Shown: positions 21,055-39,153 of the stretch, in pieces
Layout: each line of letters opens with the position of its first letter
Position numbering within the stretch: the first letter of the stretch is position 1
Assembly: GCF_021952865.1 (NCBI RefSeq)
Contig: NZ_CP040792.1
Coordinates: 992,001 to 1,056,000, forward strand
From: Clavibacter californiensis
GTDB lineage: Bacteria > Actinomycetota > Actinomycetes > Actinomycetales > Microbacteriaceae
Reading direction: 5' to 3'
DNA length: 64,000 bases
Program-made: the position numbers and the translations under genes
The notes under the pieces: generated by a model
Seen by the model: only the letters and a program-made list of their open reading frames with translations
Told to the model about the DNA's origin: nothing
Database searches by the model: none

Positions 21055-22080
21055 CTAGGCGCGGACGTCCACCACGACGCGGCCGCTCGACCCGCCCGCG
21101 AGGATCCGCTCGCCCGCGGCGATCGCGCCGTCGAGCGGCACGGTGGTGGTGATCGTGTCGAGGAGCGCGGGATCGAGGTCGCTGGCGAGCCGGACCCACG
21201 CCTCCTCGCGCAGCGCGGCCGGCGCCTCGACGGAGTTGATGCCCGCGAGCGTGACGGCCCGGAGGATGAACGGGAGCACGGTGCCCGGGAGGTCGGGGCC
21301 CTGCGCCAGTCCCGCCGCCGTGACGACGCCGCCCCAGCGGGTCTGCGCGAGCACGTTGACGAGGGTCGCGCTGCCGACGCTGTCGACCGCACCCGCCCAG
21401 CGGATGCGCTGCAGCGGCTTCCCCGGCTCGCCGAGCTCGGAGCGGTCGATCACGTCGGCGGCGCCGAGCGCGCGCAGCCGGTCGCCGAGCTCGTCGACGC
21501 GGCCGGTCGAGGCGACCACGCGGTGGCCGAGGCGCGCGAGGAGCGCGACGGCGACGGATCCGACCCCGCCGCCCGCGCCCGTGACGAGCACGTCGCCGGA
21601 TCCGGGCTCCACGCCGCCGCGCTCGAGCGCGAGCACCGAGAGCATCGCCGTGAAGCCGGCGGTGCCGACGGCGGCCGCGCGCGCGGCGGAGAACCCGGCG
21701 GGCACGCGCACGAGCGACGCGGCCGGCACGCGCACGCGCTCGGCAAGCCCGCCGTCGCGGCTCTCGCCCAGGCCCGCGCCGTTGAGGACGACCAGGTCGC
21801 CGGGGCTGAAGGCGTCGGATCCGCTCCCGGCGACCGTGCCCACCGCGTCGATGCCGGCGACGAGCGGGCTGGTGCGCGCGATGCCGGGCCGCCCGCCGAG
21901 GAGCATGCCGTCCTTGTAGTTGACGCTGGAGTAGAGGACGTCGAGCGCGACCTCGCCGTCGCCGGGTCCGTCGGGGCCGCCCGTCGCCCGCTCGTCGGGG
22001 AGGTCGCGCAGCGCGACCTCGATGCCTGTGGTGCCGTCGTCGGCGACGGTCTGCTCGGCCACGAGCGCGCGGTACGTCAT
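21055..22080 (-). CDS. acuI: Acryloyl-CoA reductase / YhdH-type quinone oxidoreductase (MDR superfamily)
   Basis: 341 aa zinc-free medium-chain dehydrogenase. VALDVLYSSVNYKDGMLLGG and PLVAGIDAVGTVAGSGSDAF are close to the YhdH/AcuI subgroup; VLVTGAGGGVGSVAVALLAR is the NADPH-binding loop, and GGVVTAAGLAQGPDLPGTVL then PFILRAVTLAGINSV are also characteristic. AcuI reduces acryloyl-CoA to propionyl-CoA in some bacteria, while others reduce small enones. I call the family with confidence and the substrate not. TAGCGT 6 nt before the ATG predicts leaderless translation. Confidence 0.85.
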   Translation of the reverse strand: MTYRALVAEQTVADDGTTGIEVALRDLPDERATGGPDGPGDGEVALDVLYSSVNYKDGMLLGGRPGIARTSPLVAGIDAVGTVAGSGSDAFSPGDLVVLNGAGLGESRDGGLAERVRVPAASLVRVPAGFSAARAAAVGTAGFTAMLSVLALERGGVEPGSGDVLVTGAGGGVGSVAVALLARLGHRVVASTGRVDELGDRLRALGAADVIDRSELGEPGKPLQRIRWAGAVDSVGSATLVNVLAQTRWGGVVTAAGLAQGPDLPGTVLPFILRAVTLAGINSVEAPAALREEAWVRLASDLDPALLDTITTTVPLDGAIAAGERILAGGSSGRVVVDVRA

Positions 22081-22086
22081 GCCGTC

Positions 22087-22092
22087 ACGCTA
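22087..22092 (-). promoter_or_regulatory. -10 box TAGCGT, leaderless promoter of the AcuI-type gene
   Basis: On the minus strand TAGCGT is followed by GACGGC and the ATG at 22080. Confidence 0.6.
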
Positions 22093-22112
22093 CGCCCGGG
22101 GTCGGGCGCGAC

Positions 22113-23138
22113 CTAGCCGAAGAGGATCGCGGCCTCGTCGTAGCGGTGCTGCGGCACGGTCTTGAGGCGGCCGAGCGCCTCCTCGAACCCCACGTGCACG
22201 ATGTCGGTGCCGCGGAGCGCGACCATGCGGCCCCAGTGGCCGTCGCGCACGCTGTCGACCGCGGCGAGGCCGAGGCGCGTCGCGAGCACGCGGTCGTAGG
22301 ACGACGGGGTGCCGCCGCGCTGGATGTGGCCGAGGGTCGTCGCGCGGGTCTCGATGCCCGTGCGCTCCTCGATGATCGGGGCGAGCTGCTCGCCGATGCC
22401 GCCGAGCCGCGGGCGGCCGAAGGCGTCGAGGCCGCGCTCGCCGTGCGCGTCCGACGCGTGCTCGGGGACGAAGCCCTCCGCGACGACGACGAGCGGCGCG
22501 CGCCCGCGGTCGTAGGCCGAGCGGACCCAGCCGATGATCTCGTCCATGCTCGTCTTCTGCTCGGGGATGAGGATCGCGTGCGCGCCCGCGGCCATGCCGG
22601 AGTGCAGCGCGATCCAGCCCACGTGCCGGCCCATGACCTCGGCCACCATGCAGCGGCTGTGCGAGTCGCCCGTGGTGCGGAGGCGGTCCATGGCGTCGGT
22701 CGCGATCTGCACCGCGGTGTCGAAGCCGAACGTGTAGTCGGTGGCGTCGAGGTCGTTGTCGACGGTCTTGGGGACGCCGACGATCTTGAGGCCCGCGTCC
22801 GTCAGCCGCTTGGCCGCCGCGAGCGTTCCCTCGCCGCCGATGGCGAGGATCGCGTCGATGCCGAGGCGGTCGAGGTTCTCCTGGATCCGCTCCACGCCGC
22901 CGTCGCCCTCGAACGGGTTCGTTCGGCTGGTGCCGAGGATCGTGCCGCCCTGCTTGCCGATGCCCTGGATGTCGCGGCGCGCGAGCGGCATGACGTCGCC
23001 GTCGACGACGCCCCGCCAGCCGTCGCGGAAGCCCACGAACTCCTGCTTGTGGATGGTCGTTCCCTTGAGCACCGCCCCGCGGATGACCGCGTTGAGTCCG
23101 GGGCAGTCTCCGCCTGAGGTGAGGATTCCGATGCGCAC
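22113..23138 (-). CDS. pfkA: 6-Phosphofructokinase
   Basis: 341 aa glycolytic enzyme. MRIGILTSGGDCPGLNAVIR, LGTSRTNPFE, AILAIGGEGTLAAAKRL, GVPKTVDNDLDATDYTFGFD and MGRHVGWIALHSGMAAGAHA are diagnostic. The nucleotide-binding GGEGT keeps glycine at the position that is aspartate in PPi-dependent enzymes, while PKTVDND keeps the lysine; this Gly/Lys pair is that of ATP-dependent actinobacterial PFKs. The GTG at 23138 directly precedes the conserved RIGILTSGG; upstream in-frame codons are not conserved. It is divergent from the kinase gene at 23177, with only 38 bp between the start codons. Confidence 0.95.
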   Translation of the reverse strand: MRIGILTSGGDCPGLNAVIRGAVLKGTTIHKQEFVGFRDGWRGVVDGDVMPLARRDIQGIGKQGGTILGTSRTNPFEGDGGVERIQENLDRLGIDAILAIGGEGTLAAAKRLTDAGLKIVGVPKTVDNDLDATDYTFGFDTAVQIATDAMDRLRTTGDSHSRCMVAEVMGRHVGWIALHSGMAAGAHAILIPEQKTSMDEIIGWVRSAYDRGRAPLVVVAEGFVPEHASDAHGERGLDAFGRPRLGGIGEQLAPIIEERTGIETRATTLGHIQRGGTPSSYDRVLATRLGLAAVDSVRDGHWGRMVALRGTDIVHVGFEEALGRLKTVPQHRYDEAAILFG

Positions 23139-23176
23139 ACGTCCATCATGGGGCACGGGTCCGCGAGACTGGCCGG

Positions 23177-23884
23177 ATGGACTCCGGACCCGACCGCCGA
23201 CCGCACCCCGCATCGCCCGCGACGGACGACCTCGACGCCCTCGCGCGCCGCGCCATGGGCCTCGTGCGCGACGGCCGTCGGGCGATCCTCGCCATCGCGG
23301 GCAGCCCCGGCGCCGGCAAGACGACCCTCGCGCGGGCGCTCGTGGCGCGTGTCGACGCGATGGCGGGCGACGGCACCGCGGCCTGCGTGCCCATGGACGG
23401 CTTCCACCTCGCCAACGCGACGCTCGACCGGCTGGGCCGCCACGACCGCAAGGGCGCGATCGACACGTTCGACGGCTGGGGCGTGCTCGCCCTGGTGCGG
23501 CGCCTCCGCGTCGAGACGGACCACGTCGTCTACGCGCCGTCCTTCGACCGGGCCGTCGACGAGGGCGTCGCGGGCGCCGTGGCGGTGGATCCCGGCATCC
23601 GGCTCGTGGTGCTGGAGGGCAACTACCTGCTGGTCGACGAGGATCCGTGGGGGCAGCTCGCCGCGGAGCTCGACGAGGCGTGGTTCTGCGCGACGCCGGG
23701 CGACGAGCGCTTCGCCCGGCTGGTGGACCGGCACAAGGCCGGCGGACGCGCGCCGAGCGCGGCAGAGGCCTGGGCCCGCGAGGTGGACGGCGCGAACGCC
23801 GCGCTCATCGAGGCGACCCGCGGCCGTGCCGACCTCGTGGTGGACGGCACGGCCGCGGGCGTGCCGGACGCGATCTCCGGCTAG
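23177..23884 (+). CDS. Nucleoside/nucleotide kinase-family P-loop protein
   Basis: 235 aa. Walker A is GSPGAGKTTLARALVARVD (about residues 42-60); VPMDGFHLANATLDRLGRHD then KGAIDTFDGWGVLAL is the substrate loop shared by the uridine-kinase, pantothenate-kinase and FrcK-like group. VVLEGNYLLVDEDPWGQL and RLVDRHKAGG (lid arginines) complete the fold. Members phosphorylate nucleosides, fructose or pantothenate-like substrates; this one's substrate is unknown. It is divergent from pfkA, so a sugar-linked role is possible but not shown. Confidence 0.85.
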   Translation: MDSGPDRRPHPASPATDDLDALARRAMGLVRDGRRAILAIAGSPGAGKTTLARALVARVDAMAGDGTAACVPMDGFHLANATLDRLGRHDRKGAIDTFDGWGVLALVRRLRVETDHVVYAPSFDRAVDEGVAGAVAVDPGIRLVVLEGNYLLVDEDPWGQLAAELDEAWFCATPGDERFARLVDRHKAGGRAPSAAEAWAREVDGANAALIEATRGRADLVVDGTAAGVPDAISG

Positions 23885-23894
23885 CGCACGCGGG

Positions 23895-24395
23895 TCAGAG
23901 CTCGACGGTGCCGTGCTCCCCGACGTCCTTCGGACGCTCGCCCGTGATCGCGGCCTTGGCGTACTTGATGAGCGCGATCGGCTTCGGGGTGTCCTGGTAC
24001 CAGTACTCGGCGGCGTCGGCGTGCACGCGGATCAGCGCGACCGTCGGGTCGTCCTTCCCGCCCTCGAACCAGGCCTCGGCGCCGGCCGACCACAGCTCGT
24101 CGATGCGCGCGCGGTCGCGCGTGATCTCCGCGGTGCCCGCGATCGAGAGGAACCCGTCGCCCGACTGCAGCGACACGTTGACCTGGTCGTTCGCGCGGAT
24201 CTCGGCGGTCTTGTCGCTCGGATCCTGGGTGAAGAACCAGAGGTCGCCGTCGAAGTCGCGCTCCTGGCTGGCGAGCGGGCGGCTGACTAGCTGCCCGCGG
24301 GCGTTGACGGTGGTGAGCAGCGCGATCCGGGCGCTCTTCACGAGCTCGGCGACGCGCTCGCGGTCGTCCTGGTGGTCGTTCGTCGTGTCGGTCAT
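23895..24395 (-). CDS. Pyridoxamine 5'-phosphate oxidase-family general stress protein
   Basis: 166 aa split-barrel flavin-binding protein. RVAELVKSARIALLTTVNAR, LVSRPLASQERDFDGDLWFF and VNVSLQSGDGFLSIAGTAEI are characteristic of the general-stress-protein 26-like PPOX group, as is the C-terminal RVHADAAEYWYQDTP. Members bind FMN or F420; the reaction is unknown. The 3' end converges on the kinase gene with 10 bp between. TAGCGT 7 nt before the ATG predicts a leaderless mRNA, and a second divergent leaderless promoter for the glycosylase gene starts about 40 bp away. Confidence 0.88.
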   Translation of the reverse strand: MTDTTNDHQDDRERVAELVKSARIALLTTVNARGQLVSRPLASQERDFDGDLWFFTQDPSDKTAEIRANDQVNVSLQSGDGFLSIAGTAEITRDRARIDELWSAGAEAWFEGGKDDPTVALIRVHADAAEYWYQDTPKPIALIKYAKAAITGERPKDVGEHGTVEL

Positions 24396-24402
24396 GCGGC
24401 CG

Positions 24403-24408
24403 ACGCTA
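24403..24408 (-). promoter_or_regulatory. -10 box TAGCGT, leaderless promoter of the PPOX gene
   Basis: On the minus strand TAGCGT is followed by 7 nt and the ATG at 24395. Confidence 0.55.
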
Positions 24409-24448
24409 CGCGCGCCCGGCGCGTCCGAGGAGGGTCGGCGGCCGTGCG

Positions 24449-24454
24449 TACCCT
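24449..24454 (+). promoter_or_regulatory. -10 box TACCCT, leaderless promoter of the glycosylase gene
   Basis: TACCCT is followed by GAGTGG and the ATG at 24461. Confidence 0.55.
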
Positions 24455-24460
24455 GAGTGG

Positions 24461-25426
24461 ATGGACCAGGGCGGCGCGGCGGTGACGGCCCCCGACGCGC
24501 GCACGACGTACCTGCCCGACCGCGAGGTGGACCTCCGGCTCGTGCTCCGCCCGCTGTTCCGCGGCGTCGTGGATCCGACCTGCCGCTGGGATCCGGCCCC
24601 GCCCGGATCCCGCCGCGCCGGCGTCTGGCGCACCGCCCGCACGCCGCTCGGCGACGCGTCGCTCCGGCTGGATCCGCGCGCGGACGGCGGCGTCGACGCC
24701 CGCGCCTGGGGCCCCGGAGCCGAGTGGGTGATCGCCGGCGTGCCGGAGCTGCTGGGCGAGGGCGACGACTGGTCCGACCTCGACGTCTCCGCGCATCCGC
24801 TGCTCCGCGACGCGCACCGCCGCCTGCCCGCGCTGCGCCTCATGCGCACCAACCACGTCTTCGAGGCGATGGCCTCGGCGGTGCTCGAGCAGAAGGTCAC
24901 CGGGCTCGAGGCCAGGCGGGCGTGGCGGCAGCTGATCCTCGCGCACGGCGACCCCGCGCCCGGGCCGGTGCCGGCGGGCATGCGCGTGCTGCCGTCGCCC
25001 GAGCGCTGGCGCCTCATCCCGTCGTGGGAGTGGCACCGCGCGGGCGTGGATCCGAAGCGGTCGCGCACGCTGATCGCGGTCGCGACCTCGGCTGCGGGCC
25101 TCGAGCGCACGCTCGCGCTCGGGCGGGGGAGCGAGGAGATCACGCGGCGGCTGCGCTCGATCCCGGGCGTGGGGATCTGGACGGCGGCGGAGACCACGCA
25201 GCGCGCCCACGGGGATCCGGACTCGGTGAGCGTCGGCGACTACCACGTGCACGACATGGTCGGGTGGGCGCTCGCCGGCCACGCGGTCGACGACGACGGG
25301 ATGCTCGAGCTGCTGGCGCCGTGGCGGGGCCAGCGTCAGCGGGTGATGCGGCTCATCGAGGCGAGCGGGTTCCGGAAGCCCCGGTTCGGCCCGCGCATGA
25401 CGGTGCAGGACCACCGCGCGCACTGA
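24461..25426 (+). CDS. DNA-3-methyladenine glycosylase II-like (HhH-GPD) protein
   Basis: 321 aa. The N-terminal half (VDLRLVLRPLFRGVVDPTC and onward) resembles the AlkA-like beta domain. NHVFEAMASAVLEQKVTGLE and the helix-hairpin-helix LRSIPGVGIWTAAETTQRA are diagnostic, followed by DPDSVSVGDYHVHDMVGWAL with the candidate catalytic aspartate. The protein should excise alkylated purines as the first step of base-excision repair. No Ada or MGMT gene is adjacent. It is divergent from the PPOX stress gene; both have leaderless-type promoters. Confidence 0.88.
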   Translation: MDQGGAAVTAPDARTTYLPDREVDLRLVLRPLFRGVVDPTCRWDPAPPGSRRAGVWRTARTPLGDASLRLDPRADGGVDARAWGPGAEWVIAGVPELLGEGDDWSDLDVSAHPLLRDAHRRLPALRLMRTNHVFEAMASAVLEQKVTGLEARRAWRQLILAHGDPAPGPVPAGMRVLPSPERWRLIPSWEWHRAGVDPKRSRTLIAVATSAAGLERTLALGRGSEEITRRLRSIPGVGIWTAAETTQRAHGDPDSVSVGDYHVHDMVGWALAGHAVDDDGMLELLAPWRGQRQRVMRLIEASGFRKPRFGPRMTVQDHRAH

Positions 25427-25453
25427 GCGTCGCCGCGGTCCTGCGTCCGCGGA

Positions 25454-26254
25454 TCAGCTGTCGGCCGCGATGCCGTCGGGCAGCTGCGCGCCGGCCTTCG
25501 TGAGCGCGTCCACGAGGTCCTGGCCGGCGACGGTCGTGATGATGTCGCCCTGGATGCGCAGCGTCGGGGTGCCGGTGACGCCCGCCGAGGTCGCGTCGGA
25601 GGTGTTGCTCGTGATCCACGACGAGTACTTGCCCTCGGCCACGCACGTGCGCGCCGCATCGGCCGTGACGCCCTGCGTGGTGAGCCAGGTGACGAAGTCG
25701 GCGTGGGTCCACGAGTCGGTGATGGTGGAGTGGTTGTCGAACAGCGCCGAGTGCACGGCCGGCCACTTGTCGGGCTCCTCGGCGAGGACGCACGCGGCGG
25801 CGCTGCCCGCGACCACGCCGTACTTCGTGACGATCTGGATGGGGTGGTAGACGATGCGCACCTGGTCCGTGGCGGCGATCCGGTCGAGCAGCGGGCCGGT
25901 CTCGGCCTCGTACTGCGCGCAGTGGGGGCACGAGTAGTCCTCGTACACGTCCATGGTGACGGGGGCGTCGGCCGCGCCCACGCTGACGCCGGTGGGCTCG
26001 GTCGCGATGCGCACCTGGTCGCCCGTGGACATCGGCGCCGTGGTGTCCTGCACGGGGCCCGCGGCGCTCGCCGCCCGGGACTGGCCCATGAGGTAGACGC
26101 CGCCGGCGATGGCCGCGATGACGATGACGAGGCCGCCCGCGACGGAGAACTGGGCGATGAGGCGGCGGCGCTTGCGGCGCCGGTCGTCGAGGGCCCTCTC
26201 GATGCGTGCCTTCTCGCGGATAGCGCGTGCCTTCTCGTTCTCATGCCGGACCAT
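25454..26254 (-). CDS. DsbA-like thioredoxin-fold protein, membrane-anchored
   Basis: 266 aa. A basic coiled-coil-like N-terminus (KARAIREKARIERALDDRRR) precedes one membrane anchor (about residues 36-58, FSVAGGLVIVIAAIAGGVYL). An extracellular DsbA/DsbG-like domain carries the redox motif CPHC in DVYEDYSCPHCAQYEAETG, and the cis-Pro loop reads GVTGTPTLRIQG. It should act in oxidative folding or disulfide exchange outside the membrane. The start at 26254 is favoured by TAGGAT 7 nt upstream; an ATG at 26278 would add 8 residues. It is divergent from galM-like 26330. Confidence 0.88.
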   Translation of the reverse strand: MVRHENEKARAIREKARIERALDDRRRKRRRLIAQFSVAGGLVIVIAAIAGGVYLMGQSRAASAAGPVQDTTAPMSTGDQVRIATEPTGVSVGAADAPVTMDVYEDYSCPHCAQYEAETGPLLDRIAATDQVRIVYHPIQIVTKYGVVAGSAAACVLAEEPDKWPAVHSALFDNHSTITDSWTHADFVTWLTTQGVTADAARTCVAEGKYSSWITSNTSDATSAGVTGTPTLRIQGDIITTVAGQDLVDALTKAGAQLPDGIAADS

Positions 26255-26261
26255 GGCGACG

Positions 26262-26267
26262 ATCCTA
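26262..26267 (-). promoter_or_regulatory. -10 box TAGGAT, leaderless promoter of the DsbA-like gene
   Basis: On the minus strand TAGGAT is followed by 7 nt and the ATG at 26254. It supports that start over the one at 26278. Confidence 0.5.
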
Positions 26268-26317
26268 GGGATCGGCATGTCCGTGCCCCTGGGAGGCGCC
26301 ACAGCCCTGCGTATGGA

Positions 26318-26323
26318 TAGGCT
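26318..26323 (+). promoter_or_regulatory. -10 box TAGGCT, leaderless promoter of the aldose epimerase gene
   Basis: TAGGCT is followed by 6 nt and the GTG start at 26330, a leaderless GTG. Confidence 0.55.
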
Positions 26324-26329
26324 CGGGGA

Positions 26330-27283
26330 GTGCCCGACGACGTGACGTACGTACCCCGCCTCCCCACCGGCCAGCAGCACGAGCTCACCGCGGAGGTCGA
26401 CGGGCGCTCCCAGCGCATCGTGATCGCCGAGGTCGGCGCCGCGCTCCGCGTCTTGCAGGTCGACGGCACGGACCTCGTGCAGTCCTACCCGGACCACGCG
26501 CGGCCTCCCTTCTGCAGCGGCATCGTGCTCGCGCCCTGGCCCAACCGGATCCGCGACGGCATCTGGGAGCAGGACGGCGTCACGCACCAGCTCGACATCA
26601 CCGAGGTGGACCGCGAGAACGCGATCCACGGCCTCCTCGAGAACGCGCCCTACCGCCTCGCGGAGCGCGACGACGTCTCCGTGACGCTCGCCGCCGACGT
26701 CCACCCGCAGCGCGGCTACCCGTTCGCCCTCGAGACGACCGTGCGCTACGAGCTCACGGGGAACGGCGTCCGCGTCACGCACGGGATCCGCAACGTCGGC
26801 TCCGCGGACGCGCCCGTCGCCGTCGGCACGCACCCCTTCCTGCGCGTCGGCGACGTGCCCACCGAGGACCTCGAGGTCGTCATCGACGCGCCCACCCACA
26901 TCGAGGTGGATCCCGTGCGCCTCAACCCCACGGGCGTCCAGACCCCGGTCGACGGCACCCGCTACGACCTGCGCGAGGGCGTCCGCGTGCGCGACGCCCA
27001 GCTCGACGACGCGTGGGCCGACGCCCGCGTGGTCGACGGCGTCACCCGCCACGGCGTCCAGGCGCCCGACGGCCGCCGCACCGAGATCTGGGCCGACGGC
27101 GAGTTCACCTACTGGCAGGTCTTCGTCACGCCGTGGTACCCGGTCGCCGACGGACACGTGTGGGCCGTCGCGGTCGAGCCGATGACAGCGCCGGCCGACG
27201 CGTTCAACTCGGGCGACGGCCTCATCACGCTCGCGCCCGGATCCGAGTGGTCCGGCACCTGGGGCATCGACCTCCACGACTGA
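26330..27283 (+). CDS. Aldose 1-epimerase family protein
   Basis: 317 aa with a beta-sandwich galactose-mutarotase-like fold. GIVLAPWPNRIRDGIWEQDG, NAIHGLLENAPYRL with the conserved HG, VAVGTHPFLRVG with the second active-site histidine, and the C-terminal VAVEPMTAPADAFNSGDGL with the catalytic glutamate all match the YeaD/GalM superfamily. It interconverts alpha and beta anomers of hexoses or phospho-hexoses; the exact sugar is unknown. It starts at GTG 26330. Confidence 0.92.
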   Translation: MPDDVTYVPRLPTGQQHELTAEVDGRSQRIVIAEVGAALRVLQVDGTDLVQSYPDHARPPFCSGIVLAPWPNRIRDGIWEQDGVTHQLDITEVDRENAIHGLLENAPYRLAERDDVSVTLAADVHPQRGYPFALETTVRYELTGNGVRVTHGIRNVGSADAPVAVGTHPFLRVGDVPTEDLEVVIDAPTHIEVDPVRLNPTGVQTPVDGTRYDLREGVRVRDAQLDDAWADARVVDGVTRHGVQAPDGRRTEIWADGEFTYWQVFVTPWYPVADGHVWAVAVEPMTAPADAFNSGDGLITLAPGSEWSGTWGIDLHD

Positions 27284-27368
27284 GCCCGGCGGTGATGGTC
27301 GTCTGGACGCCGGCTGGGAGCTGTGGTCGGAAACCGAAGCGACCCGGGACGCCCGGCGCGGATCGTCC

Positions 27369-27374
27369 TAGCGT
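27369..27374 (+). promoter_or_regulatory. -10 box TAGCGT, leaderless promoter of the VOC gene
   Basis: TAGCGT is followed by CGGACC and the ATG at 27381. Confidence 0.6.
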
Positions 27375-27380
27375 CGGACC

Positions 27381-27830
27381 ATGACCGACACCAGCGCGAC
27401 CACAGCTCTCGACTCCATCACCGGCGTGCACCACGTGCGCATCTCCGTCACCGACCTGGCCCGATCGCGCGCCTTCTACGAGGGCGTGCTGGGCCTCTCG
27501 CCCGCCGTGGAGAGCGAGGGCGACCCCAGCGACCCCGCCGTGCTCGCGGATCCCGCCCAGTACTTCGGCGGCGTCATCTACGGCGTCGGCTCGCAGCTGT
27601 TCGGCCTCCGCCCGATCGCGGACAACGACGCCGCGTTCGACCCCGCGACCCGCGGCCTCGACCACGTGAGCCTCCAGGTCGGGTCGCGCGACGACCTCGT
27701 GCGCGCGGCCGCGCTGTTCGAGGAGCGCGGCGTCGCCCACGGCGAGGTCATCGACTTCCCCACGGGCATGTCGATCCTCTCCGTGCAGGACCCGGACGAC
27801 ATCAACGTCGAGCTCGTCGTCGCGGGCTGA
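27381..27830 (+). CDS. VOC family protein (glyoxalase/bleomycin-resistance fold)
   Basis: 149 aa. ITGVHHVRISVTDLARSRAF then YEGVLGLSP is the first beta-alpha-beta-beta-beta unit with its metal-ligand histidine; DHVSLQVGSRDDLVRAAALF opens the second, and VQDPDDINVELVVA supplies the C-terminal glutamate ligand. Such single-subunit VOC proteins are metal-dependent isomerases, dioxygenases or resistance proteins; nothing in the sequence fixes the substrate. It has its own leaderless-type promoter and is followed by a separately started OhrR-like regulator. Confidence 0.88.
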   Translation: MTDTSATTALDSITGVHHVRISVTDLARSRAFYEGVLGLSPAVESEGDPSDPAVLADPAQYFGGVIYGVGSQLFGLRPIADNDAAFDPATRGLDHVSLQVGSRDDLVRAAALFEERGVAHGEVIDFPTGMSILSVQDPDDINVELVVAG

Positions 27831-27933
27831 TCCGCGACCCCGCCGGCGGCGCGCACGAGCGCGCCGCCGCCGTCCGCCTGCGTAGCATCTCCCCTGGTGC
27901 CGAGCAGGGCACGACCCGGTCGAGGAGGACGCG

Positions 27934-28395
27934 ATGACGATGACGGACCCCCTGGCGCTCGAGAGCCAGGTCTGCTTCCAGGCGGTGGTCGCCGCCCGCA
28001 CCGTGGTGGCCGTCTACCGGCCGATCCTCGAGCCGCTCGGGCTGACGCACACGCAGTACCTCGTGATGCTCGCGCTGTGGGAGCGCGACGACCGCTCGGT
28101 GTCGGACCTCGGATCCACCCTGCAGCTGGAACCCGCCACGCTGACGCCGCTGCTCAAGCGCCTGCAGGCCGCCGGCTTCGTCGACCGGGCCAGGAGCGCC
28201 GCGGACGAGCGCGTCGTCGTGGTCTCCCTCACGGACGCCGGCCGCGAGCTCCGCGGCCGAGCGGTCGACGTGCCCGCGCAGGCGGCCGCGCGCACCGGCA
28301 TGACCGTCGCCGAGCTCGAGGCGCTCCGCGACGCGCTCGACGACGTGGTGGGCCGGCTCACCGCAGCGCTCGCGGACGGCGGGGCCGCCGCCTGA
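27934..28395 (+). CDS. MarR family regulator, OhrR-like peroxide sensor
   Basis: 153 aa winged-helix protein. [20 protein letters not shown] carries a single cysteine near residue 14 at the place of the redox-sensing cysteine of OhrR, and [20 protein letters not shown] is the characteristic OhrR opening. The recognition region is [20 protein letters not shown], and the wing is [17 protein letters not shown]. It should repress an organic-hydroperoxide resistance gene and be inactivated by oxidation. No ohr gene is seen in the window, so the target lies elsewhere. GAGGAGG precedes the ATG at good spacing. Confidence 0.88.
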
Positions 28396-28416
28396 TCGGA
28401 CCCGCCCGGTGCTCCG

Positions 28417-29163
28417 TCAGTCCCCGGTCGCCGGCCCCTCGCGGGTGAAGGTGAGGACGTCGCCGAACGACGCGAGGAGCTCGGCCTCCGCGTTCGCCGG
28501 CGCGGCGGGATCGATGGACACGCTGACGCGGTCGGCGATCGTGTCGACACCCCATCCGGTGAGCCAGCCCGCCCGTCCCATGGGCGTGGACTCCAGGGCC
28601 TCCGCGATGTCCATGAGCTGCTGCTCCGTGCGCTCCGCGGTCGTGATGCGCAGCGGGTCCTCGCCGGCGATGTCGGCGATCCGCTGCCGCACGTCCGCGC
28701 CGACCTCGCCGACGATCGCGACGACCATGACCTGCGGCTCGGCGACCGGGTTCTCGACCCACACGCCGCCGGAGGCGCCGAGAGGGGTGAGGATCGCGCG
28801 CATCTCCTCGAGCTTCGGCGCGAGCGTCTCCTGGCGCGCGAACTCGGCGGCCTCGGCCGGCGTGAGGCGGAGCCCGGTCCAGTCGCTCTCCACGGAGTCG
28901 GCCGCGGCCGCGACCTGCTCCACGTAGGGGCGGTCGGAGCGCAGGGCGAAGATCCGGCGCTGCGCGACCTGCTGATCGATCTCGCTGGGCTCGGCGGCGG
29001 GGGTCGCGGCGGCGGCGGTCGGCGCGTCGGCGGCGGCCTCCTGGACCGCCGGACGCTCCTCCGGCCGCATGGCTGTGGCGACGGCGAGGGTGCCCGTCGC
29101 GACGACGGCGGCCGCCGCGACGACGATGACGGCACGGGTCCGACGCGTGGGCGTGCGGGTCAT
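28417..29163 (-). CDS. Secreted or membrane-anchored protein of unknown function
   Basis: 248 aa. The N-terminus [20 protein letters not shown] is a basic n-region followed by a hydrophobic segment (about residues 12-31), then an Ala/Pro/Glu-rich linker to about residue 60. The body is helical and charged, with [20 protein letters not shown] and [20 protein letters not shown], and includes a beta-rich part [19 protein letters not shown] do not recognise a family; the arrangement loosely recalls pro-regions of secreted serine proteases, but there is no protease domain. It is the neighbour downstream of the truncated levanase on the same strand. Confidence 0.65.
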
Positions 29164-29255
29164 GGCGGGCGACCTCTCCGCGGAGGGCGCGTCCGCAGGT
29201 CGATCCTCCCGCGCGGTCACGCCCGCGGGCAAGGGCGTCGGGATGGCCTGTGCGC

Positions 29256-30310
29256 TCAGCGGCCGCCGTCGAACGGCGCCCAGCTCGCGTCGGTCACGCG
29301 CGTCGTGCCGTCCACGCCCTCCACGGAGAGGCCGGCGCCGTCGAGCGTGCCGACCGTCGCGGTCGTGAGGACGGCCGCGTCGCCGTCGACGAAGGCCTCC
29401 AGCGTGCGGTCGTCGAGGACGAGGTCGAGCGTGACCGGGTCCCCGGCCGCCGTGTCCGCGAGCGGCGCGGTCGCGGGCCGGTCGTAGGCGTCCGGCATGG
29501 TCCCGTCCGGGTCGTCGTCGCGCACGACGAACGCCTGCCGCCTGGCGGCGTCGTAGCCGACCGTGACGGTGCCGCCCTCGGGGGAGGCGAGCCGCACGCG
29601 GGCCTCGCGCGCGGGATCCGCGGGGTCGGGCGTGAGCGTGAGGCGGAGGCGCGAGGGGCCGCGTGGCGCGTCGGCGAGCGGGGTCGCGGCGTCGATCCGC
29701 GCGTCCGGGATGGCCCGGGCATCGCCCTCGCGCGCCGCCAGCGCATCGAGGGGAGCCGAGCGCAGGGCCCAGCCGGCGCCGTCGGGTACCAGCCGCAGCT
29801 CCCGCACCAGCGACTGGCCGCCGCCCGCGCCGCCGTCGCGCAGCGGCAGGCGCCCCGCGTAGGCCCAGCTGCTCGTCCAGCTCATCGCGTAGCGGCGGGT
29901 GGGGGCCGCGCCGTCGGCCGGATCCGCCCAGGTGACCCCCGCGTAGAGGTCGGGGCCCTGGTCGAGCCAGCGCGGGGCGTCGTCGTCGGTCGTGAAGCGC
30001 TCGCCGTCGAGGTCGCCGACCCAGTACGCGTAGCCCGTGCCGCGGCCCCGGGCGGCGCCGTCCGCGCCGACGCCGAGGACCCAGCGGACGCGGCCGGGAT
30101 CGTCCGCGCTCGCGATGGGGAAGACGTCGGGTGTCTCCATCGTGCCGAGGTCGTCGCGCGCGAAGTCGGAGCGGTAGGTCCAGTGGATGAGGTCGGGCGA
30201 CGTGTAGAAGCCGACGCGCCCGCTCTCCGCGAGCGCCATGCTCCACCGCCCGTGCGCGCCGTCCCACACCACCTTCGGGTCGCGGAAGTCGGGGCCGCCC
30301 GGGGGGATCC
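29256..30310 (-). pseudogene. GH32 levanase/fructan hydrolase, 5' part missing
   Basis: About 350 codons of the middle and C-terminal region of a glycoside hydrolase family 32 enzyme. The remnant starts at PPGGPDFRDPKVVWDGAHG, which holds the RDP motif, and includes the acid/base region METPDVFPIASADD and a C-terminal beta-sandwich. The whole N-terminal part with the signal peptide and the nucleophile motif (WxNDPNG) is absent. At about 30300-30315 the frame runs directly into the antisense strand of a levansucrase gene facing the other way. The remnant has no internal stop and ends normally, so the truncation looks recent. It cannot encode an active enzyme. Confidence 0.85.
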
Positions 30311-31338
30311 TCCCCGACCAGTCGTTCACGCAGCAGGCCGAGTGGTCGGGATCCGCGCGGATCATGGCCTACGGAACGGTCAAGCTGTTCTTCACCGACG
30401 TGGCCTTCTACCGCGATGCGAAGGGGCAGGACGTGAAGCCGGCCGACCCGGTCATCTCGCTGAGCCAGGGGCGCATCGAGAAGACGGACGGCGCGGTGAA
30501 GGTGGCCGGCTTCGAGACGGTGACCCCGCTCCTGCGGCCCGACGGGCAGAGGTACCAGACGAACGAGCAGAACTGGTCCACCAGCTTCCGCGACCCGTTC
30601 ACGTTCACTGATCCCGACCACCCGGGCAAGACGTACATGGTGTTCGAGGCCGACGTCGCCGGGAAGCGCGGCGAGCAGGAGTGCGACGAGACCGACCTCG
30701 GCTACCGGAAGGGCGACCCCGCGGCGGAGGACCCGAAGGAGGTGACCGCGAGAGGCGCGAACTACCAGATGGCGTCCATCGGCCTGGCGGTCGCGGATGA
30801 CGCGGACCTCACGAAGTGGCACTTCCTGGATCCGCTGCTCGAGTCGGCCTGCGTCACCGACCAGACCGAGCGGCCCGAGGTGATGATCGAGAACGGCAAG
30901 CACTACCTGTTCACGATCAGCCACCGCTCGACGTTCGCGAAGGGCATGGACGGCCCCGAGGGCGTCTACGGCTTCCTGGGGAACGGCCTGCGCAGCGACT
31001 ACAAGCCCATGAACGGCGGATCCGGCCTCGTGCTCGGCAACCCGACCGACCTGGACTACGCGGGCGGCACCGCGTACGCGCCCGACCACAACCAGACTCC
31101 GGGCGCGTTCCAGGCGTACTCGAGCTACATCCTCCCGGGCGGGCTGGTGGAGTCGTTCATCGACGCCGTCGGCACGAAGGAGTCCTTCCGCCGCGGCGGG
31201 ACGCTCGGGCCGACGGTGCGGCTCGAGTTCGACGGCGACACGTCGAAGCTCGACAGGGGCTACGGCGAGGGCGGGCTCGGCGGGTACGCCGACATCCCGA
31301 CGACCCGGGTCTTCGACCCGGCGCACCCGCCGCAGTAG
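30303..31338 (+). pseudogene. GH68 levansucrase, 5' part missing
   Basis: About 345 codons of the GH68 catalytic domain, from LPDQSFTQQAEWSGSARIMA to the natural stop. The transition-state aspartate motif is present in NWSTSFRDPFTFTDPDHPG, and the acid/base glutamate in VTDQTERPEVMIENGKHY, but the signal peptide and the nucleophile region (around WDxW) are missing. It abuts the oppositely oriented levanase remnant head to head at about 30300-30315. The simplest reading is one deletion that removed the divergent promoter region and both 5' halves. The upstream in-frame extension to 30238 is antisense levanase sequence. Inactive unless it is an assembly artefact. Confidence 0.85.
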
Positions 31339-31407
31339 GGCGAGGAGCGGCGAGGCGCGGCGGCGGCGGTCATCCCGTCGTCGCCGCGTCCTCCCGGGCC
31401 GCTGATC

Positions 31408-31413
31408 TACACT
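31408..31413 (+). promoter_or_regulatory. -10 box TACACT before the copper-type operon
   Basis: TACACT ends 8 nt before the ATG at 31422, so the transcript would have at most a couple of leader bases. It is the first gene of the putative copper operon. Confidence 0.5.
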
Positions 31414-31421
31414 CGCTGTCG

Positions 31422-32075
31422 ATGCCCGCCCCGTCCCCGACCCCGATCCCGCCGCGCGTCCAGCGCGTGATCCGGGGGCTCGCCGCATCCACCACCGCCA
31501 CGTTCGTGGCCGCCCTCTTCCACGAGGCCGGCGGCGGGGCCGCCCCGTCGTGGGCCGTCGTGGCGTTCGGGCTCGCGCTCGCGTCGCTCGCGGCCATCGC
31601 GCTCGCCGGCACGCGCACGTCGCTGTGGCGCCTCGTCGCCGCGGTGGGCGTCAGCCAGCTGCTCTTCCACGGCCTGTTCACCGCGGCGGGCGACGTGACC
31701 GGCCAGGCCGTCGCGGCGGATCCGCACGCGGGCATGGGGCACGGCGCGTCACCTGTCGCGCTCCCGGGCCTCGACGGCGCGACCGGCGGATCCGGCGCGC
31801 TCGACCCCGGCATGCTGCTCTCGCACAGCGCGGCCCTCATCGTCACCGTGCTCGCGCTGCGGCACGGCGAGGCGGCCATCCGCGCGCTCGTCGGCGCCTC
31901 CGCGGTCCGCGTCGTGCGCGCCCTCGCGATCCCGTTCCTCCGGCCAGAGGGACGGCGCGACACCGCGCTCGCCCGGGCCGTCCGCGCTCCGCTGGCGCTG
32001 CGCGACCTCTGCGTCCGGCTCGGGCGCCTGCGTCACCGCGGCCCGCCGCGCCCGCGCGCCCTCGCCGCAGCCTGA
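31422..32075 (+). CDS. Polytopic membrane protein, probable copper-operon partner
   Basis: 217 aa with about four hydrophobic helices (around residues 15-35, 45-65, 68-90 and 130-150). Histidines sit in or near the helices (AALFHEAGG, QLLFHGLFTAAGD), in a Met/His-rich loop DPHAGMGHGA, and in MLLSHSAALIV. I know no named family for it. The metal-ligand-like residues and its place just before ycnI and copC suggest membrane handling of copper. The ATG was chosen from the -10 box TACACT 8 nt upstream. The C-terminus is Arg/Pro-rich. Confidence 0.7.
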   Translation: MPAPSPTPIPPRVQRVIRGLAASTTATFVAALFHEAGGGAAPSWAVVAFGLALASLAAIALAGTRTSLWRLVAAVGVSQLLFHGLFTAAGDVTGQAVAADPHAGMGHGASPVALPGLDGATGGSGALDPGMLLSHSAALIVTVLALRHGEAAIRALVGASAVRVVRALAIPFLRPEGRRDTALARAVRAPLALRDLCVRLGRLRHRGPPRPRALAAA

Positions 32076-32243
32076 CGCGCCGGCCGGATCCCGCGACCCG
32101 CGGATCCTCCGCCCACCGCGCGAGCCCGCTCGCGCCGCGGACGCGATGCCCCGCATCGCCCGCCCCTCTCCTCCCTCACCGGACGCCGGCACCGCCGCGT
32201 CCGCTCCCGGGGCCGCTCCGCGCGGCCCGGAACAGGACATGCC

Positions 32244-33008
32244 ATGACCCGCTCATCCACCCCCGCCCCCCGCCGCCGGATCCTCCGCTCGGCCACCGCG
32301 CTCGTCGGCGGCGTCGCGCTCGCCGTCGCCGTGCCGCTCGCGGCCTCCGCGCACGTGCGCGTCTCGCCCGACCAGGCGGCCGCCGGCAGCTACAGCACGC
32401 TGACCTTCAAGGTCCCGACGGAGTCCGCGACCGCGACGACCAGGAGCGTCACGGTCGACCTGCCGAAGGACGCCCCCTTCTCGAGCCTCTCCACCGAGCC
32501 CGTGCCCGGCTGGACCGCCAAGGTCACGACCGAGAAGCTCGGCACCCCCGTGAAGACGGACGACGCGACCATCACGGACGCGCCCGTCGAGGTCACCTGG
32601 ACCGCCGACGACGGCGTGGGCATCAAGGCAGGCGAGTTCCAGCGCTTCACCGTCTCGGTCGGACCGGTGCCCGACACCGGCAGCATCATGCTCCCCGCGC
32701 ACCAGGCCTACTCGGACGGATCCGTCGTCGACTGGGACCAGGCCACCCCCGCCTCCGGCGAGGAGCCGGAGCACCCCGCGCCCACGCTCTACGTGGACGA
32801 CGCCCCGCCCGCCGACTCCATGAGCGCGATGACGACCACCGCGGCGCCCGACGCGACCGTCACGACGGCGGCGTCCGACACGAGCGCCACGAGCAGCGCG
32901 GTCGCGGTGGGTCTCGGCGTCGGCGGACTCGCCCTCGGCGCGGTGGCCCTCGTGGTCGCGGTCTTCGCGCTCACCCGCGTGCGCCGCGAGGGCGGCGGCC
33001 AGGCGTGA
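32244..33008 (+). CDS. YcnI family copper-associated exported protein (DUF1775)
   Basis: 254 aa. The signal peptide (MTRSSTPAPRRRILRSATAL and hydrophobic core) ends at ASA, and the mature protein begins HVRVSPDQAAAGSYSTLTFK. In YcnI this N-terminal histidine together with a tryptophan (here VEVTWTADDG) binds Cu(II), so the ligand set is preserved. A DUF1775 beta-sandwich follows, then a Thr/Ala-rich linker, and a C-terminal membrane helix (about residues 218-242) anchors it. The stop overlaps the copC GTG by 4 bp. Copper scavenging or delivery outside the membrane is inferred. Confidence 0.9.
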   Translation: MTRSSTPAPRRRILRSATALVGGVALAVAVPLAASAHVRVSPDQAAAGSYSTLTFKVPTESATATTRSVTVDLPKDAPFSSLSTEPVPGWTAKVTTEKLGTPVKTDDATITDAPVEVTWTADDGVGIKAGEFQRFTVSVGPVPDTGSIMLPAHQAYSDGSVVDWDQATPASGEEPEHPAPTLYVDDAPPADSMSAMTTTAAPDATVTTAASDTSATSSAVAVGLGVGGLALGAVALVVAVFALTRVRREGGGQA

Positions 33009-33829
33009 CGCCCGGAGACCGGATCCCGGCCCGCACCGGCAGGCGCCCGCTCCGGCGGCTCGCCGCGGCGGTCGCCGGCGCCGCGCTCGCGACCGGGGCG
33101 CTCGCGTTCGCCGGGCTCGCGCAGGGGAGCGGTCCCGACGGGGCGCTGTCGGCGTCGGCGCACAACTACCTCGTGTCGAGCTCGCCCGCGGCCGGATCCA
33201 CGATCGACGCTCCGCCGTCGGAGTTCACGCTGACCTTCAACGACGTGATCCTCGACCTCGCCGCGGCGGGCGGGGGCGGCGGCGACGCGTCGAGCGGGTC
33301 CGCGGCCGCAGGCGGCTCGTCCGTGGTGCAGGTGACGGGACCCGACGGCCAGGGCACGCACTTCGAGACCGGCTGCGCGACGGACTCCGGACGCACGGTC
33401 TCGGTGCCGGTCGCGCTCGGTGGATCCGGGCAGTACACGGTCACGTGGCGCGTGGTCTCCGCGGACGGGCATCCGGTCTCCGACTCGATCGCTTTCACTT
33501 ACCAGGCGCCCGCGGGCGCGACGGCATCGGCGGGCACGCCCGACGGGCCGGGGTGCGCGGCGGCGCAGGAGGGGGCGGCCGGATCCGGCGCGACCTCGTC
33601 GGGCGGCACCGGGTCGTCCGCCGCGGATCCGGGCACCGCGGCAGGCCAGGAGCAGGGCGTCGCGCCCTACCTCGGCGTCATCGTCGGCGTGGGCATCGGG
33701 ATCGTCGTGCTCGCGGCGGCCGCGGTCGTGCTCATCGTGGTGACCGGGCGGCGGAAGCCCGCCGCGGCCGCCGCGACGGGCGAGGCCGATGGCGACGCCC
33801 CGCGCGAGGGCGGCCCACCCGTCGCCTGA
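33005..33829 (+). CDS. CopC-domain copper-binding protein with C-terminal membrane anchor
   Basis: 274 aa. The signal segment is followed by AHNYLVSSSPAAGSTIDAPP, the CopC opening whose first histidine is a copper ligand; VVSADGHPVSDSIAFTY contains the second conserved histidine. A glycine-rich insert (AAAGGGGGDASSGSAAAGG) interrupts the beta-sandwich. After a Ser/Gly linker there is one transmembrane helix (about residues 220-247). No CopD domain is fused. GTG start within GTGA coupled to ycnI. It ends 14 bp before a very strong palindromic terminator. Confidence 0.88.
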   Translation: MTPGDRIPARTGRRPLRRLAAAVAGAALATGALAFAGLAQGSGPDGALSASAHNYLVSSSPAAGSTIDAPPSEFTLTFNDVILDLAAAGGGGGDASSGSAAAGGSSVVQVTGPDGQGTHFETGCATDSGRTVSVPVALGGSGQYTVTWRVVSADGHPVSDSIAFTYQAPAGATASAGTPDGPGCAAAQEGAAGSGATSSGGTGSSAADPGTAAGQEQGVAPYLGVIVGVGIGIVVLAAAAVVLIVVTGRRKPAAAAATGEADGDAPREGGPPVA

Positions 33830-33843
33830 CCGCACGCGCCCCG

Positions 33844-33885
33844 CGACGACGGGCCCGGATCCGCGCGGATCCGGGCCCGTCGTCG
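33844..33885. terminator. Perfect 42-bp palindrome, bidirectional terminator
   Basis: 33844-33863 and 33866-33885 are exact reverse complements with CG at the centre, so the whole 42-mer is palindromic; it includes two GGATCC sites. It lies between converging copC and lysR-type genes. Confidence 0.8.
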
Positions 33886-33906
33886 TCGTCGGCACGCGCA
33901 GGCGGC

Positions 33907-34809
33907 TCAGCCCGCGCCCGGCCCCATCACCTCGACGGCGCGTGCGAGGGCATCGCGGCAGGCGCGGATCCCCGGCCGGTCGAGGCTGCCCACGCGCGAC
34001 GACGTGAACACCGTGCGCCGGGGCGACCCCGGCAGGCCGATGAGCCGCACGTCGGGCTCGCGGCCGGCCCACACGAGGTCCGGCAGCACGGACGCCGCGT
34101 GCCCGCCGCGCACGAGGTCGATGTGCGCCTGCAGGTCGGCCGTCACGTACCGCACGTCCGGCTCGAAGCCCGCGACCCGGCACACCTGCTCGGCGAAGTG
34201 GCGGGACGCCGTGCCCGCTGGCTCCATCACCCACGGCAGGCGGCGCGCGTCGGAGATGGAGCGCACGTCGTCGCGGCCGGGCGGGAGGCCGAGGCGGAGC
34301 GGATCCACGCACAGCTCCTCGCGGTCGAGGTCGGCCGGCCGCGGTGCGGCGTGCGCCGGGTACTGCTCGGCGATGACGAGGTCGTGGTCGCGCGCCCACA
34401 CGTCGTGCAGGCCCGACTCGGGCTCGCGCATGGTGATCTCGACCCGGAGGTCCGGGTAGTCGTCGCGGAGGATCGTCAGCGCGGGCGGCACGAGCGCGAG
34501 CAGCGCCGACTGGAACGCCGCCACGCGGATGGTGCCGGACACGTTCGCGAGCGACGCGTTCACCTCCGTCTCGGCGCGCTCGAGGCGCTCGAGCAGGGCC
34601 GTGGTGTGCTCGACGAGGATCTCGGCCTGCGGCGTGAGCACCACCCGCCGGCCGACCCGGCGCAGGAGCGGGACGCCGGCCTCGCGCTCCAGCTGCGCGA
34701 GCTGCTGCGACACCGACGACGGGCTGAACGACAGCGCGTCGGCGACCGCGCCGATCGTGCCGCGCAGCTTGAGCTCGCGCAGGAGCCGCAGCCGTCGCAT
34801 CTCGAGCAC
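33907..34809 (-). CDS. LysR family transcriptional regulator
   Basis: 300 aa. The N-terminal winged helix is RRLRLLRELKLRGTIGAVAD then ALSFSPSSVSQQLAQLEREA, with LLRRVGRRVVLTPQAEILVE as the wing and linker helix. A periplasmic-binding-like effector domain starts at about residue 90 (GTIRVAAFQSALLALVPPAL). It starts at GTG 34809, with AGGAGG 5 nt upstream. It is divergent from putA across 172 bp that holds inverted repeats, so it is the obvious candidate regulator of proline oxidation, with proline or an aromatic/amino-acid effector possible; not proven. Confidence 0.88.
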   Translation of the reverse strand: MLEMRRLRLLRELKLRGTIGAVADALSFSPSSVSQQLAQLEREAGVPLLRRVGRRVVLTPQAEILVEHTTALLERLERAETEVNASLANVSGTIRVAAFQSALLALVPPALTILRDDYPDLRVEITMREPESGLHDVWARDHDLVIAEQYPAHAAPRPADLDREELCVDPLRLGLPPGRDDVRSISDARRLPWVMEPAGTASRHFAEQVCRVAGFEPDVRYVTADLQAHIDLVRGGHAASVLPDLVWAGREPDVRLIGLPGSPRRTVFTSSRVGSLDRPGIRACRDALARAVEVMGPGAG

Positions 34810-34860
34810 TCGCGCCTCCTCGGGATCTCAGGCGAGCGTGGAATCATCGGCAGGACCGCA

Positions 34861-34895
34861 CGATGATCATCGGAAACGTTCAGCGCATCCGATGA
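34861..34895. promoter_or_regulatory. Inverted repeats in the lysR-putA gap, candidate LysR-type site
   Basis: TCATCGGA (34867-34874) and TCCGATGA (34888-34895) form an inverted repeat with 13-nt spacing. 34861-34872 is also a perfect 12-bp palindrome, and a further ATCATCGG lies at 34843-34850. LysR-type regulators usually bind such dyads between divergent genes. Confidence 0.5.
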
Positions 34896-34981
34896 GAGCA
34901 TGGTCGCACACTGGGAGGACGCGCCCGCAGCGCGGCCGACGCCGGGGCAGAGCGCCCGACCCGAGACGAAGAGGTTCCCGC

Positions 34982-37900
34982 ATGACCGCCGAGACCGCAT
35001 CCGCCCCCGAGACCGCCGCGATCCCGACGGTCGATGGCACCGCCGCAGCACCCGACCGCGAGGCGCTCGCCGACCGGTCCGTCGCCCTCGTGCGCACCTG
35101 GCTCGCGGAGGCGGCGCAGCACCCCGCGGATCCCTCCGCCGAGCGCCTCGCGGGCGTCCTCAAGGATGAGAACGGCCTCGACTTCACCATCGGCTTCGTC
35201 GACCGCGTCGTCCGTCCCGAGGACCTGCCTGTCGCCGGCAACAGCCTCGCCGCGCTCACCGCCAAGACCCCCGGCTTCCTGCCCTGGTACATGCAGGGCG
35301 CGATCCGGGCGGGCGGCATCCTCGGCCCCGTCCTCCCGCAGGTCGTCGTCCCGGTGGCGCGCCGCGTGCTGCGCGAGATGGTCGGGCACCTCATCGTCGA
35401 CGCGACGAGCGAGAAGCTCGGCCCGGCCATCGCCAAGCTGCGCGAGGGCGGATCCCGCCTCAACCTCAACCTGCTCGGCGAGGCCGTGCTCGGCGAGAAG
35501 GAGGCCGCGCGCCGCCTCGCGGGCACGCGCGAGCTGCTCGCGCGTGACGACGTGGACTACGTCTCCATCAAGGTGTCGAGCGTCGTCTCGCAGCTGTCGA
35601 TGTGGGCGTTCGACGAGGCCGTCGAGAAGGTCGTCGAGCGCCTGACCCCCCTGTACGAGCTGGCCGCGAAGGCCGCTGCGCCGAAGTTCATCAACCTCGA
35701 CATGGAGGAGTACAAGGACCTCGACCTCACGATCGAGGTGTTCACGCGCGTGCTCGACCAGCCGCAGCTCAAGGACCTCGAGGCCGGCATCGTGCTGCAG
35801 GCGTACCTGCCCGACGCGCTCGCCGGGCTCCAGCGGCTCACGGCGTGGGCGCAGGAGCGGCGCGCGGCGGGCGGGGCGCCCATCAAGGTCCGCATCGTCA
35901 AGGGCGCGAACCTGGCGATGGAGCAGGTCGACGGCCGGATGCACGACTGGGCGGTCGCCACCTGGGCCACGAAGGAGCAGACCGACACGCACTACAAGCG
36001 GATGCTCGAGCACGCGCTCACCCCCGCCGCGGCCGACGCCGTGAAGATCGGGGTCGCCGGCCACAACCTCTTCGACGTCGCGTACGCGTGGCTGCTCGCG
36101 GAGGAGCGCGGCGTGACCGACCGGATCGAGTTCGAGATGCTGCTCGGCATGGCGACCGGCCAGGCCGAGGCCGTGAAGCGCACGGTCGGCGGGCTCCTGC
36201 TCTACACGCCCGTCGTGCACCCGACCGAGTTCGACGTGGCGATCTCGTACCTCATCCGCCGCCTGGAGGAGAACGCGAGCCAGGAGAACTTCATGTCGGC
36301 GGTGTTCGAGCTGAGCACGTCGAGCGAGCTGTTCGCGCGGGAGGAGTCGCGGTTCCGGGCGTCGCTCCAGGGAGTGGACGACACGATCCCGGCGCCGAAC
36401 CGCACACAGGACCGCCGCTTCCCGCCGGAGCTCGACGACGTGGATCCGCTCGCCGAGCCCGAGACGCCGGAGGAGCCCGAGGAGGAGGTCGACCCGCAGC
36501 TCACGAGCGTGGTGCAGGGCTTCACCCGCGGCTCGCTGCTGACGCCCGACGCGCTCGTGGACCCCGACGCCTCCGCGACGCCGTTCCACAACGCGGCCGA
36601 CACGGATCCGGCGCTGCCGACGAACCGCGCCTGGGGCCGCGAGATCCTGTCCCGCGTCGAGGCCTCGCAGCTGGGCGTCGCGACCATCGAGGCCGCGCGC
36701 ATCGACTCCACCGGGCAGCTGGACGACATCATCGACGGCGTCCGCACGGCCGCCGCGTCCTGGGGCGCCCGCCCCGGCGAGCAGCGCGCGGCGCTCCTGC
36801 ACCGCGTCGGCGTCGCGATCGAGCGCAACCGCGCGCGCCTCATCGAGGTGATGGCGTCGGAGACCGGCAAGACCATCGCCGAGGCCGACCCCGAGGTCAG
36901 CGAGGCCGTGGACTTCGCGCACTACTACGCCGAGCGCGCCCGCGACCTCGACCGCGTGCAGGGCGCCCGCTTCGTGCCGTCGCGCGTCACCGTCGTGGCG
37001 CCGCCGTGGAACTTCCCCGTCGCGATCCCCGCGGGCAGCATGCTCGCGGCCCTCGCCTCCGGCAGCGGCGTGGTCGTCAAGCCCGCCGGCCAGGCCCGCC
37101 GATCCGGCGCCGTGCTCGTCGAGGCGCTCCGCGAGGCCGGAGTGCCGCGCGAGCTGCTCGCGCTCGTCGACGCGGGCGAGGCCGAGTTCGGCGAGCACCT
37201 CATCTCCCACCCGGCGGTCGACCGCGTGATCCTCACGGGCGGCTACGAGACCGCCGAGGTCTTCCGCTCCTGGCGCTCGGACCTCCCGCTCCTCGCGGAG
37301 ACCAGCGGCAAGAACGCCATCATCGTCACGCCCAGCGCCGACCTCGACCTTGCCGCGGCCGACGTCGTGAAGAGCGCGTTCGGCCACGCCGGCCAGAAGT
37401 GCTCGGCGGCGAGCCTCGTGATCCTCGTGGGCTCGGTCGGCAGGTCCCGCCGGTTCCTCACGCAGCTCGTCGACGCGGTGTCGTCGCTGCGCGTGGGCTA
37501 TCCCTCGGATCCCACCACGCAGATGGGCCCGATCATCGAGCCGGCCGCCGGCAAGCTGAAGCACGCGCTCACGCAGCTCGGCGTCGGCGAGAAGTGGCTC
37601 GTGGAGCCGGAGGCGAAGGACGAGACCGGGCGCCTCTGGTCGCCGGGCGTCCGCGATGGCGTGAAGCCGGGGTCGTACTTCCACCTCACCGAGTTCTTCG
37701 GGCCCGTGCTCGGCGTGATGCGCGCGCGCACCCTCGAGGAGGCCATCCGCTTCCAGAACGCCATCCCCTACGGCCTCACCGCGGGCCTGCACAGCCTCGA
37801 CGCGCGCGAGCTCGAGCAGTGGCTCGAGACCGTGGAGGCGGGCAACCTCTACGTGAACCGCGGGATCACCGGCGCGATCGTGCAGCGCCAGCCGTTCGGC

Positions 37901-39091: not shown

Positions 39092-39153
39092 GCGCCGTGT
39101 CCCGCACACCGAGGGCGGATGCGGTCGCATCCGCCGCCTGCCACGATGAGCGG

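What the first reader, a model, noticed from the sequence alone, without database searches (positions are those of the whole stretch)
29256..31338. Levanase and levansucrase genes both lost their 5' halves at one head-to-head junction
The minus strand carries the middle and C-terminal part of a GH32 fructan hydrolase and the plus strand the middle and C-terminal part of a GH68 levansucrase. Their homologies meet at about 30300-30315 (a GGGGGGATCCTCCCC-like sequence), with both nucleophile motifs, both signal peptides and any shared promoter missing. A single deletion of about 1 kb or more in a divergent fructan-synthesis/degradation pair explains this. It would remove synthesis and breakdown of levan in one step, an exopolysaccharide change that could matter for a plant-associated bacterium. 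No internal stops remain, so the event looks recent. A wrong join in the assembly is the main alternative.
Basis: partly seen in the sequence, partly recalled or inferred. Interest (0 to 1): 0.75.

Follow-up and report, generated by a model that had tools for sequence, protein, structure and literature searches.

The report
Deleted levan gene pair in Clavibacter
A plant-associated Clavibacter appears to have lost the front thirds of two neighbouring fructan genes (one likely making levan, one likely breaking it down) through one clean deletion of about 1.4 kb; this is an ordinary gene-loss event in a genus where levan production is already known to vary.

Summary
Window 29256-30303 (minus) is the 3' part of a GH32 fructan hydrolase and 30304-31338 (plus) the 3' part of a GH68 fructosyltransferase. 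The genus is Clavibacter. Of 17 congeners examined, 12 carry the divergent GH32/GH68 pair at this locus, one of them with a stop inside GH68. Against all 12, collinearity breaks at window 30303|30304 and 1378-1452 bp are missing. The missing piece is about a third (not half) of each gene plus the region between them. It was not found elsewhere in the genome, and there is no second GH68. The junction shows no microhomology when judged against relatives, and Ku is encoded, so end-joining is plausible. Substitution patterns in the remnants still look mostly constrained, which supports a late deletion; the absence of stops alone does not. Five of 17 congeners lack the whole pair, so its presence varies in the genus. 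Levan production is a published variable trait in Clavibacter. Verdict: a real, ordinary loss-of-function deletion; low interest. Not seen: raw reads, a second isolate, or a levan assay.

The parts
29256..30303 (-). 3' remnant of a GH32 fructan hydrolase gene (RDP motif and ETPD region kept; MNDP motif and the hydrophobic N-terminal segment lost)
   Evidence: Pfam GH32N from position 128 and GH32C; 86-93% DNA identity to the segment in the ten congener loci where it forms its own BLAST piece, and part of a longer 93-94% piece in the two nearest; intact protein of G010. Motif roles recalled.
30304..31338 (+). 3' remnant of a GH68 levansucrase/fructosyltransferase gene (FRDPF and TERPEV motifs kept; VWDTW motif and signal-like N terminus lost)
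   Evidence: Pfam GH68 from position 115; aligned to congener genes. Motif roles recalled.
30303..30304 (.). deletion junction; about 1.4 kb absent relative to 12 congeners; GGG of one side followed by GGG of the other
30238..30303 (+). antisense GH32 sequence that supplies the first ATG of the plus-strand ORF
   Evidence: ORF list; junction
30304..30365 (-). antisense GH68 sequence that supplies the first ATG of the minus-strand ORF
   Evidence: ORF list; junction

Best explanation
In the lineage of this Clavibacter isolate, one deletion of about 1.4 kb removed the region between, and the 5' thirds of, a head-to-head fructan pair: a GH68 sucrose fructosyltransferase with a signal-like N terminus and a GH32 enzyme related to levan-degrading enzymes. 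Shown: the breakpoint, the pair in 12 congeners, only short weak matches to the missing segment and no other GH68 in this genome. Inferred: the junction arose by double-strand-break end joining (Ku is encoded); both remnants are pseudogenes, because they lack the ancestral start, the export segment and the nucleophile motif; and the isolate therefore makes no levan from sucrose by this route.
For: Truncated Pfam matches. 12 of 17 congeners have the divergent pair; in the 11 of these compared with the GH32 protein of the twelfth (G010), GH32 runs in one frame over nearly its whole length. Same breakpoint and 1378-1452 bp missing against all 12. The deleted interval of G010 as a query finds nine short matches in the own genome, the best 50 bp at 88%, the longest 145 bp at 71%. 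One GH68 in the genome. Ku in 18 of 18 genomes including this one. No sigma-70-like promoter match in 30000-30700. Changes assigned to the G000 lineage: 13 non-synonymous of 29, below the neutral share of 0.64-0.79 (P 6e-5 to 0.03).
Against: No reads and no second isolate of the species were seen. The promoter scan does not cover other promoter types; it expects almost none by chance, so its zero says little. The 13:16 ratio is not significantly different from that of the intact sister lineages (10:23, Fisher P 0.30), so relaxed selection in the remnants is not shown either way. The junction was judged against relatives, not the true ancestor, so a few bases of microhomology cannot be excluded.
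Confidence: 0.93

Rival explanations
1. A wrong join in the assembly dropped 1.4 kb; the isolate has the intact pair.
For: No read data seen; one genome per species is held (tool description of the genome search), so no second isolate could be compared.
Against: Two contigs at 100% completeness; no repeat at the breakpoint that would make an assembler collapse; the missing sequence is not elsewhere in the assembly.
Confidence: 0.05
2. One remnant is still expressed and has a new role, for example as a non-catalytic fructan-binding protein.
For: Both frames are open and show dN/dS well below 1.
Against: First ATGs come from antisense sequence of the other gene; the N-terminal export-like segments seen in the G010 genes are lost (judged by eye); no promoter match; the substitution pattern is explained by time before the deletion.
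Confidence: 0.02

Closest known systems
Divergent GH32/GH68 pair of other Clavibacter genomes (handles such as G010 and G004; by name CFBP8019, VKM Ac-2873 and VKM Ac-2872 carry the GH68 gene)
   Same: Same locus and collinear flanks; pieces covering the pair are 86-95% identical in DNA
   Different: The window lacks about 1.4 kb covering both 5' ends
GH68 beta-fructofuranosidase 3vsr and levansucrase 1w18 (PDB)
   Same: 3vsr is the best-scoring solved-structure relative of the GH68 remnant and 1w18 the best one named levansucrase
   Different: The remnant corresponds to about residue 150 onward of 3vsr; product specificity is not determined
GH32 endo-levanase LevB1 (9h8i) and levan fructotransferase (4fff), PDB
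   Same: Best-scoring solved-structure relatives of the GH32 remnant
   Different: The match starts at residue 144 of both chains; exact specificity unknown

Membership tests
GH68 (functional levansucrase) | GH68 domain over its whole length | tested here: not met
   Matches only positions 115-417 of 424
GH68 (functional levansucrase) | catalytic nucleophile Asp in the WDxW motif (role recalled) | tested here: not met
   VWDTW in the G010 protein lies in the deleted part; not in the window ORF
GH68 (functional levansucrase) | secretion signal | tested here: not met
   Signal-like N terminus of G010 lies in the deleted part; judged by eye, no predictor run
GH32 (functional fructan hydrolase) | N-terminal NDP nucleophile motif (role recalled) | tested here: not met
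   EFMNDPQRP in G010 lies in the deleted part; GH32N match begins at position 128
Deletion pseudogene pair | fuller orthologues at the same locus in relatives and a clean breakpoint | tested here: met
   12 of 17 congeners
Deletion pseudogene pair | loss of expression and enzyme activity | not testable with these tools
   needs transcript and levan assays

The most novel reading that the evidence does not exclude
Levan synthesis and breakdown are coupled in one divergent cassette that Clavibacter lineages repeatedly discard (whole-cassette absence, a GH68 stop, and this deletion centred on the shared upstream region) as part of adaptation to hosts; this isolate shows an intermediate step of that loss.
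Probability: 0.25. Interest if true: 0.4.

Novelty: new member of a known kind. Interest (0 to 1): 0.2.

Why it matters
It gives a concrete candidate genotype for a trait that is scored as variable in Clavibacter (levan production positive, negative or variable by species: Table 3 of PMC5882085 and a comparison table in PMC8289203, passages seen) and allows a simple genotype-to-phenotype test. It does not change any general view of gene loss.

Tried and rejected
Repeat-mediated deletion: the repeat search of 30200-30420 and the parent-side bases show no repeat or shared bases at the break. Moved segment: one search found only short matches. Compensation by other copies: one GH68 only; two weak partial GH32N matches elsewhere (45.5 and 29.5 bits) were not followed. 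Levan phenotypes in print were therefore not tied to single genomes. A point against a simple gene-to-trait link, resting on recall: G011 has the chromosome length that I recall for C. sepedonicus, its GH68 frame is open, yet that species is described as levan-negative. DNA search of the plasmid collection gave 7 records at 60-80% in other genera.

Papers. Listings only: 9 of 9 shown; 20 of 29; 15 of 44; 1 of 1; 10 of 16; none found; none of the listed titles or abstract starts is about a broken levansucrase in Clavibacter, but unlisted papers and full texts were not checked. Passages only: PMC5882085, PMC8289203, PMC7839047 (tables list a putative levansucrase and a levan fructotransferase of C. 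nebraskensis), PMC12089995, PMC10049144. PMC4059874: a term search found no 'levan', 'sacB', 'sucrase' or 'fructan' in its main text.

In one search the G015 GH32 segment was 1049 bases and ended out of frame; one search shows one frame from residue 3 to 543, so this was an end effect of my extraction, and the odd G015 GH32 N terminus printed has the same cause. G015 stayed; it was not among the rows used to polarise changes, except that gapped columns in any of the 13 rows were dropped. Terminator scan: one weak match at 30365-30382, not followed.

Full report
What is there. The minus-strand ORF at 29256-30365 matches Pfam GH32N from profile position 128 onward and GH32C; the plus-strand ORF at 30238-31338 matches GH68 from position 115 to 417 of 424. 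Both ORFs cross a junction near 30303 and begin inside antisense sequence of the other gene.

Comparison with relatives. The window lies in a 3.24-Mb genome of two contigs. The genus is Clavibacter: three named Clavibacter records have the contig lengths of G005, G012 and G013. Of the 17 other genomes of the genus examined, 12 have a GH68 match, and the same 12 have a GH32N match over nearly the whole profile beside it in divergent orientation. GH32 runs in one frame in the 11 compared with G010. G002 has a TAG inside GH68, which leaves a downstream frame of 364 codons instead of 523; the other 11 GH68 frames have no stop inside. BLASTN of window 22000-40000 against the 12 loci shows collinearity on both sides and a break at 30303|30304. 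The missing length is 1391, 1434, 1392, 1391, 1390, 1391, 1391, 1406, 1388, 1395, 1378 and 1452 bp (L044 to L055 in order). In G010 the missing interval holds the first 593 bp of GH32 (start chosen by me), 267 bp between the genes and the first 531 bp of GH68 (from coordinates). It includes the VWDTW and MNDP motifs, which I recall as the nucleophile motifs of GH68 and GH32, and both hydrophobic N-terminal segments (judged by eye).

Mechanism. The junction is GGG from the GH32 side followed by GGG from the GH68 side; in the relatives the next base beyond each side differs from the window, so no shared bases are seen. A repeat search of 30200-30420 found only short imperfect repeats. All 18 genomes have a Ku match. 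A deletion closed by end joining is the simplest account; this step is inference. The deleted DNA of G010 has only nine short matches in the own genome (best 50 bp at 88%).

Age. Against G010 and G004 the remnants have dN/dS of 0.13-0.25; G010 against G004 gives 0.16 and 0.21. Codon changes assigned to the G000 lineage are 13 non-synonymous and 16 synonymous, against 10 and 23 for G010 and G004 together (Fisher P 0.30). In a simple model without selection the non-synonymous share is 0.64-0.79 depending on mutation bias, and 13 of 29 or fewer has P between 6e-5 and 0.03. This suggests that most changes were made under selection and that the deletion is late; the numbers are small.

Context in the genus. 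The other five of 17 congeners (G003, G006, G009, G014, G017) have the flanks abutting, with no piece of the pair matched (edges). On a tree of the flanks (18 rows, 6300 columns) the five need at least three changes of state. Whether these are losses, gains or exchange of the locus was not resolved; 6 of 15 inner branches of that tree are starred and 6 are open. In the family sample GH68 is rare: 12 of 299 genomes at E<=0.001 and 11 above the family cut-off, the window's genome and four congeners included.

Phenotype. Published tables score levan production as positive in some Clavibacter species and negative or variable in others (PMC5882085; PMC8289203; passages only). The species of the window is not known to me, so no phenotype can be assigned. 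An open GH68 frame need not mean levan: a genome that I take by recalled length for C. sepedonicus, described as levan-negative, has one (G011). Solved relatives suggest a fructosyltransferase for GH68 (3vsr beta-fructofuranosidase first, 1w18 levansucrase) and an endo-levanase or levan fructotransferase type for GH32, so 'levan pair' is a reasonable but unproven label.

Verdict. A cleanly mapped deletion that should knock out both genes of a fructan pair. It is an ordinary kind of event in a genus where this cassette is variably present.

Noticed in passing
L011 / G002:C1:2895516-2896856: The GH68 gene of one congener has an in-frame TAG although its GH32 partner is open: a second, independent lesion of the pair.
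   Followed up: partly
window 28400-29250: The segment left of the GH32 remnant (a small protein with a hydrophobic N terminus, by eye) has a long match in only 5 of 18 genomes (G000, G010, G004, G006, G015); in G015 it lies on the other side of the pair.
   Followed up: partly
L092-L096 (G006, G009, G014, G017, G003): Five congeners lack the whole pair; the empty sites have similar edges in window terms (left 28375-28397, or 29248 in G006; right 31375-31407).
   Followed up: partly
L055 (G015): GH68 of the distant G015 is closer to the window (dS 0.18) than its GH32 segment is (dS 0.36), which hints at exchange of GH68 between lineages.
   Followed up: no
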